This document shows, piece after piece, positions 10,331 to 14,830 of a stretch of DNA of 20,628 bases. The translations under genes were made by a program, and so were the position numbers. The stretch covers positions 1 to 20,628 of IMG/VR virus record IMGVR_UViG_3300035698_002437. One strand, written 5' to 3'. The notes below the pieces were generated by a model. It saw only the letters and a list, made by a program, of their open reading frames with translations. It did not search any database and was not told where the DNA came from. The first letter of the stretch is position 1; each line of letters opens with the position of its first letter. Source of the DNA: a virus.

Positions 10331-10791
10331 AGTTTTAGATCTCCGAATTGAACGCTCAGTTTTTCAGCCGCTAAGCCATAAACCCCCTCGGGAGCTTTCG
10401 GGCTGTAGCCTGCCTCGATACGGTTAGCATGGGGCGTGCTGTTGCTTATATATATCACATCGAACGGCTTTAAACCAATAAGCTTCGCAGACGCTTCCGC
10501 CATGGACGTTGCTCTAAGCACTCCACCATCAGGAGCATCCGGCCAATTGAGTTTTCCCGCTTCGGGATGAGGTGGTGGGACTGAAGTGTCGGGGGCTCCG
10601 ATCGCTATATTGTGGCCGGATACAAACCAGCCGGTCCAAACTGGCGAGCCGTTAGCGAAGCCAACTCTGCGGCTGTCTACTGTTACCATTTTGAAGGCTT
10701 TTAATGCGATGGTTCGATGGAATTCTACAAACTTTTTTACTGTTTCTTCTTGGTAATCATCTATTTCTTTAATGAAGAGCTCGACATCCAT
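10327..10791 (-). CDS. HK97 gp10-like tail completion / head-tail joining protein
   Basis: A 154-residue protein. It opens with an amphipathic helix (DDYQEETVKKFVEFHRTIALKAF, seen across residues 11-33) and then SPVWTGWFVSGHNIAIG. The C-terminal part VIYISNSTPHANRIEAGYS is the family hallmark: Asn-x-x-x-His-Ala-x-x-Ile-Glu-x-Gly, ending SPKAPEGVYG. Proteins of this kind sit at the head-tail interface, next to the tail terminator. The ATG shares a base with the stop of the preceding gene (TAATG) and the end overlaps the next gene by 4 bases, so the group 11138-9902 is probably translated as a coupled unit. Confidence 0.85.
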   Translation of the reverse strand: MDVELFIKEIDDYQEETVKKFVEFHRTIALKAFKMVTVDSRRVGFANGSPVWTGWFVSGHNIAIGAPDTSVPPPHPEAGKLNWPDAPDGGVLRATSMAEASAKLIGLKPFDVIYISNSTPHANRIEAGYSPKAPEGVYGLAAEKLSVQFGDLKL

Positions 10792-11138
10792 TATGCCCCC
10801 TTAGCAACGATGATATGCAGCGCGGCAGTTTCACCAGCGAAGAGCTGGTTATTTACTGCCACGCGCAAAGTCTGATCGCCTACGATAATCAAATCACCCT
10901 CTTGCGGGGTAACAGGAAGCGCAGAAGCAGCCAGCCTCACCTCTCGATCGCCAAACTGAATCAATCCGGTAACTTCGTTAGGACGGAAGTTTCGAATAGA
11001 TACCTTGACGGTGTAATCTGTATTGGACTCGATGGTCTTGCGTTCAGTTACATCATAAGAACTGGCGACGCGCCTGTAAGTAACAGTGCGGCCTGCTCGG
11101 TCGATCATGGATAGGACGCCTGCTGCTATGTGGTTCAT
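10791..11138 (-). CDS. Head closure / head-tail adaptor protein
   Basis: A 115-residue protein with predicted beta structure: VTYRRVASSYD, TVKVSIRNF, VRLAASALPVTPQEGDLII, then a C-terminal strand with ETAALHIIVAKGA. The GDREVRLAA...P..GD.IIVGD pattern is typical of phage head closure (stopper) proteins encoded between the connector and the gp10-like gene. It overlaps the connector gene by 4 bases (ATGA). The role is inferred from this pattern and gene order: after DNA packaging it would seal the connector and receive the tail. Confidence 0.75.
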   Translation of the reverse strand: MNHIAAGVLSMIDRAGRTVTYRRVASSYDVTERKTIESNTDYTVKVSIRNFRPNEVTGLIQFGDREVRLAASALPVTPQEGDLIIVGDQTLRVAVNNQLFAGETAALHIIVAKGA

Positions 11139-12025
11139 ATTGATACAACGACAAATGGCTCGAGCATTTCAGCTATATCGCTAGGGATGCCACCTTGCAT
11201 CGTTGCCTCTCGATATTCGACTGAATACACATTGTCGACCTTTTCGCTTTTAATATTACTGTTTGAGCTTTGAGTGAATAGGCTCTTTACGAGCTGCAGG
11301 CACGCCTGCTCTACTGCCCGAGGTAACGTGCGTCCTGCATAGCCTGCTAGAATATAGCCGCCAGTATAGGAAACCTCATACATCTTGCGTCTCGAGCTCG
11401 GCACCGATTGTAGAGCCAATGGGGACGCTTGATAGGCTGTATCAGCCCACCCGCCTTTATTGAATATAGCGCCATTGCTTGCGTTATGAACCTCGTAATC
11501 GGTCGCCGCCAGCGCGGTTCCGTCGTAGCTAATGGAGGTAATAGAAACAATAGGTGTCCGGTTTACAAACAATACATTACGCCCGTTACCCACAAACCTT
11601 TCAACAAGCGCCTCCTGTTTGAAGGTTCGGTTGCAATAATTTTCAATCATTTCGCTGGCATCTTGGATCAGCTCCGCCAGCTCGTAGAGCTTCGCCTCGT
11701 TTGTAACTTCCATTTCGAGAGCTGCCCGAGCGAGCGTGGTTAATCCGTCGAACACTTCCGCAGGCTCGGCACGAACGATGAGAGCCACCGACTTTACAAG
11801 GGTCAAGCCTGCCGCTGTAGTAGCTGTGGCAAGGATATTATATACCAGCCCATCGGTGCCGCCTGATACGGTAATGGTTGCGGCTGTTGTAGTATTGCTG
11901 CTGCTATCCTCTGTGAGGGCAGTAGCGAAGGCAACCGAAGAAATAGTGTCCGATCCAAGCTCATCCGTGAAATCGATCGTAATCGTTTTATCTTCTGTTG
12001 GGTTCTTGACGTAGGAGTATGCCAT
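11135..12025 (-). CDS. Head-tail connector (gp6-like) with N-terminal Ig-like domain
   Basis: A 296-residue protein with two parts. Residues 1-86 form an Ig-like beta-sandwich (VKNPTEDKTITIDFTDELG, AATITVSGGTDGLVYNI, TAAGLTLVKSVALIV), a pattern I know from phage fibre-tail adaptor proteins. Residues about 93-296 are a gp6-type connector: YELAELIQDASEMIENYCNR, then VNRTPIVSITSISYDGTAL, VSYTGGYILAG, and the helix LPRAVEQACLQLVKSL. Ring-forming gp6 proteins attach under the portal. Such connectors are usually near 190-210 residues, so the first domain is an addition. The frame is continuous and there is no good internal start at the join. ATG preceded by GAGGAA. Confidence 0.85.
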   Translation of the reverse strand: MAYSYVKNPTEDKTITIDFTDELGSDTISSVAFATALTEDSSSNTTTAATITVSGGTDGLVYNILATATTAAGLTLVKSVALIVRAEPAEVFDGLTTLARAALEMEVTNEAKLYELAELIQDASEMIENYCNRTFKQEALVERFVGNGRNVLFVNRTPIVSITSISYDGTALAATDYEVHNASNGAIFNKGGWADTAYQASPLALQSVPSSRRKMYEVSYTGGYILAGYAGRTLPRAVEQACLQLVKSLFTQSSNSNIKSEKVDNVYSVEYREATMQGGIPSDIAEMLEPFVVVSI

Positions 12026-12083: not shown

Positions 12084-12224
12084 CTATGATATTAACATAG
12101 CCAAGCGCGAAAGTCGCGCCGACCTTTTTAGTCGGTTGTTAAGCCCCGCCTCGGGGTTTGGCGTTGTAATGCGCTTACGTCGCGCCCTTCCGACACCTAT
12201 GCCTAAACCTTCTCCAATACCCAT
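12084..12224 (-). CDS. Possible 46-residue Gly-alternating small protein
   Basis: A short open frame starting MGIGEGLGIGVGRARRKR and ending LSRLAMLIS. The first 12 residues alternate Gly with hydrophobic or acidic residues; the rest is strongly basic. Its ATG lies 6 bases after the stop of the spike-base-like gene, which suggests coupled re-initiation, but there is no clear ribosome site (only TGGTAA). Its DNA also contains three inverted repeats. Gly-alternating tiny ORFs occur in other phages, but I cannot name a family. Coding status is uncertain. Confidence 0.4.
   Translation of the reverse strand: MGIGEGLGIGVGRARRKRITTPNPEAGLNNRLKRSARLSRLAMLIS
12105..12135 (-). other. Two adjacent hairpins before the connector gene
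   Basis: GCGCGA/TCGCGC (12105-12119, 3-base loop) lies directly next to CCGAC/GTCGG (12119-12135, 7-base loop); they share one base. Both are perfect stems, in the gap between the spike-base-like gene and the connector gene. On the minus strand they come after the hairpin at 12144-12156, so a transcript would carry three in a row. They may slow or protect the mRNA. Confidence 0.5.
12144..12156 (-). terminator. Short GC-rich hairpin after the spike-base-like gene
   Basis: The stem CCCCG / CGGGG has a 3-base loop, flanked on the plus strand by AAG on the left and TTT on the right. On the minus strand, the direction of transcription, it is followed by CTTAACAA, so there is no proper U-run. It is only weakly terminator-like, and it falls inside the possible 46-codon ORF. 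Confidence 0.35.
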
Positions 12225-12230
12225 GGCGGA

Positions 12231-12500
12231 TTACCAGAGAGCGACAATAGAGGAAGCTGTGAGGCCTGTGGCCTTCACAATCTTTGCACGCACATCGATA
12301 AACGATCCAGCGGCAACCCCCACGAACGGGATCTCAGAACCGTCCTTGGTTACAATAGTAAGGTTTCCGGCACCGCCGATATAAAGCTGGCGGGATACCT
12401 TCGTCAGCTCGTTTGTGTCATGAGCTGTTACGGCCTCGCCACCCTCGATCGGAGACACGAGAGAGGGTTGCACATTTTCAAAATCATCTATGGCAGACAT
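12231..12500 (-). CDS. Spike-base-like small virion protein (RCAP_Rcc01079-type)
   Basis: An 89-residue protein. Its core, HDTNELTKVSRQLYIGGAG followed by NLTIVTKDGSEIPFVGVAAG and then IDVRAKIVKATGLTASSIVAL, follows the pattern of the spike base protein family named after RCAP_Rcc01079: Ser/Asp-Thr-x-x-Leu, Arg-x-Leu-Tyr-Val-Gly-Gly-x-Gly-x-Leu, and a C-terminal Ala-Thr-Gly-Thr-Thr-Ala-x-x-Ile-Val-Ala-Leu-Trp. It is smaller than the usual roughly 110 residues. It is odd that it lies inside the head-connector cluster and not with the tail tip. A good AAGGAG ribosome site lies 8 bases upstream of the ATG. Confidence 0.72.
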   Translation of the reverse strand: MSAIDDFENVQPSLVSPIEGGEAVTAHDTNELTKVSRQLYIGGAGNLTIVTKDGSEIPFVGVAAGSFIDVRAKIVKATGLTASSIVALW

Positions 12501-13606: not shown

Positions 13607-14830
13607 TTAGCTAGAAAGCTTCAGAAGCTTGATGGCCTCCGAGTTTACAACATCACCACCGACGCGAGCTGTAGCATAGAAGCCCACGAAAGGTTTAACA
13701 GTGAATGGATCGCGTAGGATATTTATACCTTTACGATCGACGATTGTATAACCTTCACGGAAGTCACCGCACGCTACAGAGAGCGAGCCGGAACCTGCCA
13801 CAGGCATATCCGCTGCCATTGCGTAAGGGCGATCCAAGATAGTATTTGGAGTGCCGCCACCTAGTCCAGGCGCCCACAAATAGTTATTATCTGAGCCCTT
13901 CAACTTGCGAATGTCACGGATAAGCAAACGGTTTGCTAGGAATGCCGCGTTAGCCTGATAATCTTCCTTCAAGCTGAAGAGTAGATTGATCAAGCCATCA
14001 GCAGTTACAGCACCAGCAGAGCCAGAATTGATTTGTTCAATCTGCCCCCATGCCGTTCCTGCAGCAATCGTTAGAATACCTTTTGGCTTGCTTACGCCCG
14101 AACCGCTGAAGAAGGCTGCGTTTTGAACGCGACCGATCTTTTCACGGATCTTTTTGTTTAACCATTCCTCTGCATTGATAGCAGAATCATCGAGAAACTT
14201 CTGTGTTGCCTTCGGGAACGCATACAGCTCATGCGTCGGGATGTTGGCCTTAGCAATTTGAGGAGTATTCGTTTCTGTTCGTGGAGTGGTTTCACCCGTC
14301 CAGCCAGCATCCGCTTCGTCATTATCAACGACGAGATCAAGAGAATCCGTGGAGATAGTAACTACGTTTGCAAATTGGCGCATAGGCGAGGTTTCGAAGA
14401 TCTTAGCAATGATTTGCCCATACAATTCAGGACGCACCAAATAGCCGCCATCAGGATCAGAGCCGACAGAGAGAGCTTTGATCTCTGTTTCCGTCATACT
14501 TCCGTCACCCTTGCGGATAAACTTATCGAATGCGGCCTTGTATTCCGTAGACTCTAACGCTTCTTTTTGCTCTTCAGGCAAACCAGCAATAGAAGATTGA
14601 GCAACAGCCTTAGCGATCATATCCATGTTCGCTTTCATAGCCGTTTGCTCTTCTTTGGTTTTTTCGATGAGATCAAATGTATCGTTAATCTTATCTAGCT
14701 TTTCCTCGGTTAGAGGATCAGCAGAACCCTTCTTTTCGATTTCAGCGAGGCGTGCGTCATTGGTCGATTTGAATTCAGCAAACGCAGCGCCCTGCTCTTC
14801 GATCATGTCCTTGATTTCCTTGGGATCCAT
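13607..14830 (-). CDS. Major capsid protein, HK97 fold
   Basis: A 407-residue protein. The first 105 residues are acidic, Lys/Glu/Asp-rich and coiled-coil-like (EIKDMIEEQGAAFAEF, EEKLDKINDTFDLIEK), the expected scaffold-like delta region. The mature capsid probably begins near residue 119-121, at ALSVGSDPDGGYLVRPE, which resembles the HK97 cleavage site region. Then come the HK97-fold segments: IIAKIFETSPMRQFANVV, DADAGWTGE-like DEADAGWTGE, AKANIPTHELYAFPKATQK, FFSGSGVSKPKGIL and the C-terminal PFVGFYATARVGGDVVN. It follows the protease gene by 18 bases, which contain AAGGAG. Confidence 0.95.
   Translation of the reverse strand: MDPKEIKDMIEEQGAAFAEFKSTNDARLAEIEKKGSADPLTEEKLDKINDTFDLIEKTKEEQTAMKANMDMIAKAVAQSSIAGLPEEQKEALESTEYKAAFDKFIRKGDGSMTETEIKALSVGSDPDGGYLVRPELYGQIIAKIFETSPMRQFANVVTISTDSLDLVVDNDEADAGWTGETTPRTETNTPQIAKANIPTHELYAFPKATQKFLDDSAINAEEWLNKKIREKIGRVQNAAFFSGSGVSKPKGILTIAAGTAWGQIEQINSGSAGAVTADGLINLLFSLKEDYQANAAFLANRLLIRDIRKLKGSDNNYLWAPGLGGGTPNTILDRPYAMAADMPVAGSGSLSVACGDFREGYTIVDRKGINILRDPFTVKPFVGFYATARVGGDVVNSEAIKLLKLSS

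What the first reader, a model, noticed from the sequence alone, without database searches (positions are those of the whole stretch)
11135..12025. Ig-like domain fused to the head-tail connector
The first 86 residues resemble the Ig-like fibre-tail adaptor proteins usually encoded near fibres, but here they precede a gp6-type connector in one chain. Twelve copies would display an Ig ring at the neck. That could anchor whiskers or collar fibres.
Basis: partly seen in the sequence, partly recalled or inferred. Interest (0 to 1): 0.5.

Follow-up and report, generated by a model that had tools for sequence, protein, structure and literature searches.

The report
Ig domain fused to phage neck connector
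A tailed phage makes its head-to-tail connector with an extra immunoglobulin-like domain that other phages can encode as a separate small gene right in front of the connector gene, so the fusion is real but a variant of a known kind of neck part, perhaps a built-in socket for fibres.

Summary
Window 11135-12025(-) is one open frame of 296 codons. Residues 7-82 match Pfam Gp77, the GP4 fibre-tail adaptor (E 7.7e-12; 46 bits, cut-off 27); residues 87-295 match head-tail adaptors (PHROG 442, E 3.2e-27). The predicted structure has a confident Ig-like sandwich (2-85; Z 11.8, rmsd 1.5 to GP4 8jou), a low-confidence linker (88-95) and a connector with its own internal beta-sandwich (Z 12.4 to the RcGTA neck). 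The N-terminus is not a normal part of the connector fold.

New here: in 45 of 258 loci with Gp77, its domain lies directly in front of a separate connector gene (two of the 45 are one cluster). 25 of these 45 connectors were scanned and all match TIGR02215. The window's fusion looks like the one-chain form of that pair. A fibre dock is plausible but untested: no fibre gene is visible nearby, and the fused copy lacks residues most separate copies keep.

Ig-bearing adaptors are not new: roseophage R4C has an N-terminal Ig domain that touches the capsid (PMC10276861). Verdict: new variant of a known kind.

The parts
11135..12025 (-). Gene for the fused Ig/head-tail connector, 296 aa
11768..12025 (-). 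Residues 1-86: Gp77-family Ig-like domain
   Evidence: PF23148 E 7.7e-12; AF2 pLDDT mostly 94-98; Z 11.8, rmsd 1.5 over 83 residues to 8jou_B
11747..11767 (-). Residues 87-93: linker; pLDDT is below 50 from residue 88 to 95
11138..11746 (-). Residues 94-296: gp6-type connector (helices 94-104, 110-131, 236-255, 282-291)
   Evidence: PHROG 442; Z 12.4, rmsd 3.9 over 167 residues to 6toa_D, RcGTA neck, model residues 88-296
11360..11614 (-). Residues 138-222: internal beta-sandwich of the connector, in the place of the capsid-attachment domain of RcGTA and Milano
   Evidence: Strands between 138 and 222 in the model; equivalence inferred
10791..11138 (-). Head closure protein Hc1 (next gene downstream)
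   Evidence: phrog_161 E 4.7e-14
12231..12500 (-). GTA-type head-spike base protein, 89 aa
   Evidence: NF048002, RCAP_Rcc01079 family, E 4.8e-25
12084..12224 (-). 46-aa ORF starting MGIGEGLGIGVG between the spike-base gene and the connector gene
   Evidence: likeness to the RcGTA head-fibre plug peptide is a comparison by eye with the text seen
13607..14830 (-). Major capsid protein (marks the head module)
   Evidence: PF05065 E 3.9e-80

Best explanation
The gene makes a head-tail adaptor, dodecameric by family knowledge, whose alpha-helical core joins portal to stopper and whose internal beta-sandwich rests on the capsid vertex, as in RcGTA and Milano. An Ig-like domain of the Gp77 family is tethered to its N-terminus by a linker predicted with low confidence and so probably flexible. 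In GP4 this domain is a separate fibre-tail adaptor, and in many other loci its gene is the one directly in front of the connector gene. Fusion of such a gene pair hard-wires up to twelve Ig docking modules around the neck. The most likely role is a built-in socket or collar for a fibre or adhesin. Shown here: the two domains, their predicted folds, the gene position, and the recurrent Gp77-then-connector pair. Inferred: twelve copies, outward display, docking of a fibre.
For: Both domains pass curated or strong thresholds. Separate predicted folds with a low-confidence linker, and specific matches to the GP4 fibre-tail adaptor for one half and to RcGTA and Mycofy1 neck proteins for the other. 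In 45 loci a Gp77 domain lies directly upstream of a connector domain on the same strand; in 29 of them the two frames overlap by exactly 1 or 4 bases. One of the 45, L030, was found through its capsid protein and not through the Gp77 motif. Of these connectors 25 were scanned, and 25 of 25 match TIGR02215, at 23-58% identity to the first, so the pair is not one recent clade. Of 9 annotated phage loci, 5 have the Gp77 gene next to a fibre or minor-tail gene and 1 has such a gene one place away. In L304 the genes come in the order portal, capsid, 800-aa protein, Gp77, connector. PMC13243795 (section 16 read) describes GP4's 8JOU_g as a fibril linking an adhesin to the tail nozzle collar and mentions an Ig-like fold in the GP4 collar.
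Against: No fibre or adhesin gene is visible in the window between capsid and connector; that slot holds a spike base and a 46-aa ORF. The fused copy lacks residues common in other copies: D14 (99%) is T, Y15 (99%) is I, W19 (96%) is F, R78 (85%) is K, R74 (66%) is L (the D, Y and W positions were part of the search pattern). In R4C an N-terminal Ig domain on an adaptor contacts the capsid. Most upstream neighbours of the pairs match no family: at most 8 of 37 scanned frames had a Pfam match, and the neighbour was picked as the longest frame ending nearby, which in GC-rich DNA can be a false one. L321, which lacks Gp77, has a lectin-like frame directly before its connector, so an adhesin there does not need Gp77. 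The pairs come from a motif search and share ancestry; no chance estimate was made. GP4's own structure paper was not available to me.
Confidence: 0.5

Rival explanations
1. The Ig domain is a second capsid-attachment or neck-stabilising domain. [quoted passage not shown]
For: R4C's adaptor has an N-terminal Ig-like attachment domain joined by a long flexible loop and touching capsid proteins; its authors propose local stability rather than adsorption (PMC10276861, passages). The fused copy lacks residues common in other Gp77 copies. No fibre gene is seen in the slot.
Against: The connector already has an internal beta-sandwich matching RcGTA, where that domain does the capsid attachment (Milano likewise, but its structural match is weak). 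By sequence the domain belongs to the Gp77 family, and R4C's adaptor gave no Pfam hit.
Confidence: 0.3
2. The Ig domain is an accessory host-binding module at the neck that sticks weakly to cell-surface glycans.
For: Ig-like domains of the capsid and tail tube of mycobacteriophage Douge bind the host surface (PMC13033339, passages).
Against: The family is named for a fibre-tail adaptor, and in 5 of 9 annotated phage loci its gene is next to a fibre or minor-tail gene. Sugar binding was not tested.
Confidence: 0.08
3. Neutral decoration: connectors tolerate extra beta domains, and this one has no specific partner.
For: The connector of relative L022 carries a different extra domain, matching PHROG 511, in front of its PHROG 442 part. 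The fused copy is divergent.
Against: The fold is predicted with high confidence, and the same two parts recur side by side in many loci.
Confidence: 0.12

Closest known systems
Ralstonia phage GP4 fibre-tail adaptor gp77 (PDB 8JOU; Pfam PF23148)
   Same: Same domain family and predicted fold for residues 2-85 (Z 11.8, rmsd 1.5, 28% identity)
   Different: A separate 93-aa protein in a podophage; here it is the N-terminus of a connector, with several common residues changed
Roseophage R4C dodecameric adaptor (vBDshSR4C_004)
   Same: N-terminal Ig-like domain joined by a flexible loop to a head-tail adaptor (PMC10276861, passages)
   Different: 178 aa; its core matches PHROG 5774 and weakly PHROG 118, not PHROG 442; no Pfam hit; its Ig domain serves as the capsid attachment domain
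RcGTA adaptor (Rcc01688); class-3 neck 1 proteins such as Milano gp14
   Same: Alpha-helical core plus internal beta-sandwich. RcGTA: Z 12.4, rmsd 3.9 over 167 residues. Milano: only Z 7.7, rmsd 7.7 over 162, at the level the tool calls common; phage 7-7-1 neck 1: Z 8.3, rmsd 4.7
   Different: No N-terminal Ig domain in the parts described in the passages read
Rhodococcus phage Trina gp74 and Streptomyces phage Wofford head-to-tail adaptor
   Same: 293- and 290-aa proteins with full-length Foldseek matches; Trina gp74 lies after the capsid gene and its C-terminal part matches PHROG 442
   Different: No Pfam hit for Trina gp74; TM only 0.34-0.37, so whether the N-terminal fold is the same is open
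Adjacent Gp77 and TIGR02215 gene pairs (45 loci)
   Same: Same two parts in the same order
   Different: Two separate genes; the window's own connector gave no TIGR02215 hit

Membership tests
Pfam PF23148 Gp77 domain (residues 1-86) | Score over the curated cut-off along most of the profile | tested here: met
   46 bits against 27, profile positions 1-83 of 84
Pfam PF23148 Gp77 domain (residues 1-86) | Fold of the solved member 8JOU | tested here: met
   Z 11.8, rmsd 1.5 over 83 residues; the best other Ig domain is at Z 9.2
GP4-type fibre-tail adaptor (functional class) | Separate protein encoded beside a fibre gene | tested here: not met
   Fused to the connector; no fibre gene found beside it in the window
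GP4-type fibre-tail adaptor (functional class) | Residues common in other copies (D8, D14-Y15, W19, R74, R78) | tested here: not met
   N8, T14-I15, F19, L74, K78; 142 rows below 70% identity, one of which is the window's own domain; D8, D14-Y15 and W19 were partly selected by the search pattern
GP4-type fibre-tail adaptor (functional class) | Physically binds a fibre | not testable with these tools
   Needs a virion structure or a binding assay
gp6-type head-tail connector (PHROG 442, PF05135) | Sequence match to the family | tested here: met
   PHROG 442 E 3.2e-27; PF05135 24.1 bits against 21.2
gp6-type head-tail connector (PHROG 442, PF05135) | Gene between capsid and head-closure genes | tested here: met
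NCBIfam TIGR02215 / TIGR01560 connectors | Score over the curated cut-off | tested here: not met
   TIGR01560 16.7 bits against 24; TIGR02215 not listed at E 1. The link to the paired connectors rests on profiles built here: a profile of the window's connector with five others finds L291 and L287 (E 1.1e-9 and 1e-6)
Class-3 neck 1 (Milano scheme) | Helical domain with internal beta-sandwich | tested here: met
   Predicted elements, and matches to 6toa (Z 12.4) and 9lw9 (Z 12.0); the match to Milano itself, 8fwe, is weak (Z 7.7)
Class-3 neck 1 (Milano scheme) | Dodecameric ring under the portal | not testable with these tools
   No complex prediction or structure available
R4C-type Ig-bearing adaptor | N-terminal Ig-like domain on a head-tail adaptor | tested here: met
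R4C-type Ig-bearing adaptor | Same adaptor core family | tested here: not met
   R4C: PHROG 5774 and 118; window: PHROG 442

The most novel reading that the evidence does not exclude
Gp77-type Ig proteins are a standing partner of TIGR02215-type connectors: a widespread, undescribed neck collar that docks adhesins, above all in prophages of Alphaproteobacteria, and this phage has fixed its stoichiometry at twelve by fusing the two genes.
Probability: 0.35. Interest if true: 0.6.

Novelty: new variant of a known kind. Interest (0 to 1): 0.4.

Why it matters
In the PDB copy searched, Gp77 has one solved member, GP4's fibre-tail adaptor. Its recurrent place directly in front of connector genes, and its fusion here, predict that it binds the connector ring and that many little-studied prophages carry neck-mounted adhesins. 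If so, the fusion names both partner and stoichiometry from sequence alone. If instead the Ig ring packs on the capsid as in R4C, the same domain has been reused for neck stability. Either outcome can be tested.

Tried and rejected
Close homologues of the whole chain: no match in viral contigs, none confirmed in genome contigs. tblastn in 50,697 phage records matched the connector half only, and the first 90 residues alone matched nothing at E 10. Portal and spike-base queries brought no confirmed relatives.

Apparent longer fusions were looked at. L023, L026 and L326 appear by eye to be start-choice artefacts, and so does L258's 504-aa frame. L022 has a different extra domain. Of 261 frames with a Gp77 hit, 5 have more than 60 residues after the domain: the window, its copy L001, L083, L302 and L303; the last three gave no connector hit in the same frame (same-frame hits listed). 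L177 is a decayed remnant in which part of Gp77 runs into part of a connector, not counted as a fusion. Weak Gp77 hits in G422 and G579 lay in frames that by eye are not phage genes. The many antibody rows reflect the common Ig fold; apart from antibody-like rows, no listed PDB chain spans both halves. No relatives of the R4C adaptor were found in viral contigs, so a profile test of R4C's Ig domain against Gp77 was not made; R4C's absence from the listed fold matches says nothing.

The Gp77 survey used a motif, KDPxxxLDYxxDW. 'No other fusion' means none among those examined. Of 57 loci with both a Gp77 and a connector hit I set aside the window, its copy L001 and the decayed L177, leaving 54; 45 are directly adjacent, two of them (L221, L287) the same cluster. 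Of the 45, 29 have an organism title shown; 27 of these I place in Alphaproteobacteria by name (recalled), 2 say only Proteobacteria or Pseudomonadota.

Papers. Passages: PMC10276861, PMC12796354, PMC10491603, PMC13033339, PMC11445458, PMC7296036, PMC11945409, PMC10966104; passages and section 16: PMC13243795. GP4's tail-structure paper was not found. Searches for Ig domains on connectors brought R4C as the only such case I saw; several listed papers were not opened, and only the held open-access library was searched.

Full report
What is there. The window is a fragment of a tailed-phage genome whose head and tail genes lie on the minus strand: terminase, portal, protease, major capsid protein, three small genes, then the gene in question, then head closure, tail completion, tail terminator, tail tube and a 1323-aa ORF taken to be the tape measure (terminase, portal and tape measure were named by eye and position, not scanned). 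The gene at 11135-12025 is one uninterrupted frame of 296 codons. Its first 86 residues are over the curated cut-off of Pfam Gp77, the fibre-tail adaptor of podophage GP4. The rest matches head-tail adaptors of PHROG 442; NCBIfam connector models stay below cut-off.

Two domains, not one. AlphaFold2 on a 29-row alignment (A4) gave mean pLDDT 75.7 and pTM 0.56. Residues 2-85 form a seven-stranded sandwich, mostly at pLDDT 94-98; residues 88-95 fall below 50; the connector follows, with four helices and an internal beta-sandwich. The structural aligner places residues 2-85 on GP4's 8jou_B at Z 11.8 and rmsd 1.5, ahead of the best other Ig domain at Z 9.2. It places residues 88-296 on the RcGTA neck adaptor at Z 12.4 and 93-296 on Mycofy1 at Z 12.0; Milano's neck 1 reaches only Z 7.7. 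Apart from antibody-like rows, no listed chain spans both halves.

The connector already has its attachment domain. In RcGTA and Milano the beta domain of the adaptor binds the capsid vertex (PMC7296036, passages; PMC10491603, passages). The window's connector has an internal sandwich in that place, so the Ig domain is extra. In R4C, by contrast, the N-terminal Ig domain is itself the attachment domain, on an adaptor of another core family (PMC10276861, passages).

A recurrent gene pair behind the fusion. A motif scan brought in viral and genome loci. Profile search of all loci held then found 261 frames in 258 loci with a Gp77 hit, counting the window and its copy; 237 are standalone-like. 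Two frames other than the window's hit both profiles: the window's copy L001, and a decayed 123-aa remnant, L177. In 45 loci a Gp77 domain lies directly upstream of a connector domain on the same strand; in 29 of them the frames overlap by exactly 1 or 4 bases, in 4 they abut or lie 2 bases apart, and in 12 the called start makes the overlap longer. L221 and L287 are the same cluster. Of these connectors 25 were scanned and 25 match TIGR02215, at 23-58% identity to the first. L030 came from the capsid-protein search and not from the motif. After its capsid gene it has the phrog_5707 gene that the window also has, two small genes, a 638-aa protein, a phrog_644 protein, Gp77 (33 bits against 27) and the connector. 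The fusion is most simply the joining of such a pair, in the same order. No chance estimate was made and the loci share ancestry.

Relatives without it. Of 33 capsid-related loci, 25 had a detectable connector, none fused; 2 of the 33, L024 and L030, have a Gp77 gene. In L024 that gene follows a 660-aa glycine-rich protein with fibre-like PHROG matches and precedes a 153-aa gene that by eye is a tail-completion protein. Of 30 tail-tube-related loci, 15 had a connector and none a Gp77 hit. In L320 and L321 a 582- and an 876-aa frame (the latter cut by the end of the locus) lie directly upstream of the connector; the latter has a laminin-G-like domain. The place just before the connector may be a slot for adhesin-like genes, but the evidence is thin: among 37 frames scanned from the pairs (36 upstream neighbours and L258's own long frame), Pfam matched at most 8 (laminin-G-like 3, DUF2341 2, Gp77 1, fn3 1, carbohydrate-binding 1), and PHROGs gave a few fibre, spike, head-decoration and unnamed families. 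Gp77 matches were found in 7 of 385 genomes of one class, 5 over the cut-off, and 10 of 296 of another, 4 over the cut-off, so few genomes there carry it.

How it may work. GP4's 8JOU structure is titled fibre I and fibre-tail adaptor, and PMC13243795 (section 16) describes 8JOU_g as a fibril linking an adhesin to the tail nozzle collar. With the gene pair, this suggests that Gp77 sits on or near the connector ring and holds fibres. Fusion would fix the number of sockets at the number of connector subunits, twelve by family knowledge. Against this, the fused copy has changed residues that are common elsewhere, such as D14-Y15 to T-I and R78 to K (the D, Y and W positions were in the search pattern), and the window shows no fibre gene in the slot. 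It shows a GTA-type head-spike base instead. An R4C-like capsid contact stays open.

How new. An N-terminal Ig domain on an adaptor is known from R4C. By predicted-structure search, adaptors of Rhodococcus phage Trina and Streptomyces phage Wofford, about 290 aa, match over their full length, though weakly. tblastn with Trina gp74 matched 136 phage records, 21 of them over at least 80% of its length; for the rest the N-terminal part is not established. I did not see the Gp77-connector pair or its fusion described in the library searched, with the limits given under Tried and rejected.

Noticed in passing
window 12084-12224 (-) and 12231-12500 (-): A GTA-type head-spike base gene (NF048002) is followed after 6 bases by a 46-aa ORF starting MGIGEGLGIGVG, like the alternating hydrophobic-glycine start of the RcGTA head fibre that binds the spike base. 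It could be a minimal or truncated head-fibre plug; a phmmer search found no relative of this spike base in the other loci then held.
   Followed up: partly
window 20303-20620 (-): An ORF at the contig end begins with a long Ala-Met-Ala-Leu repeat; it looks like a simple repeat or an assembly artefact.
   Followed up: no
L022:7305-8240: A connector frame with a different extra domain (matches PHROG 511) before its PHROG 442 part, so connectors may accept beta domains at several places.
   Followed up: partly
   Followed up: partly
L302 and L303 (genomes G166 and G034): Gp77-family matches near the start of long frames in two small genomes, several copies each (frames up to 1486 codons); possibly cell-surface proteins.
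   Followed up: no
L177:3064-3435: A decayed remnant in which part of Gp77 runs into part of a connector.
   Followed up: partly
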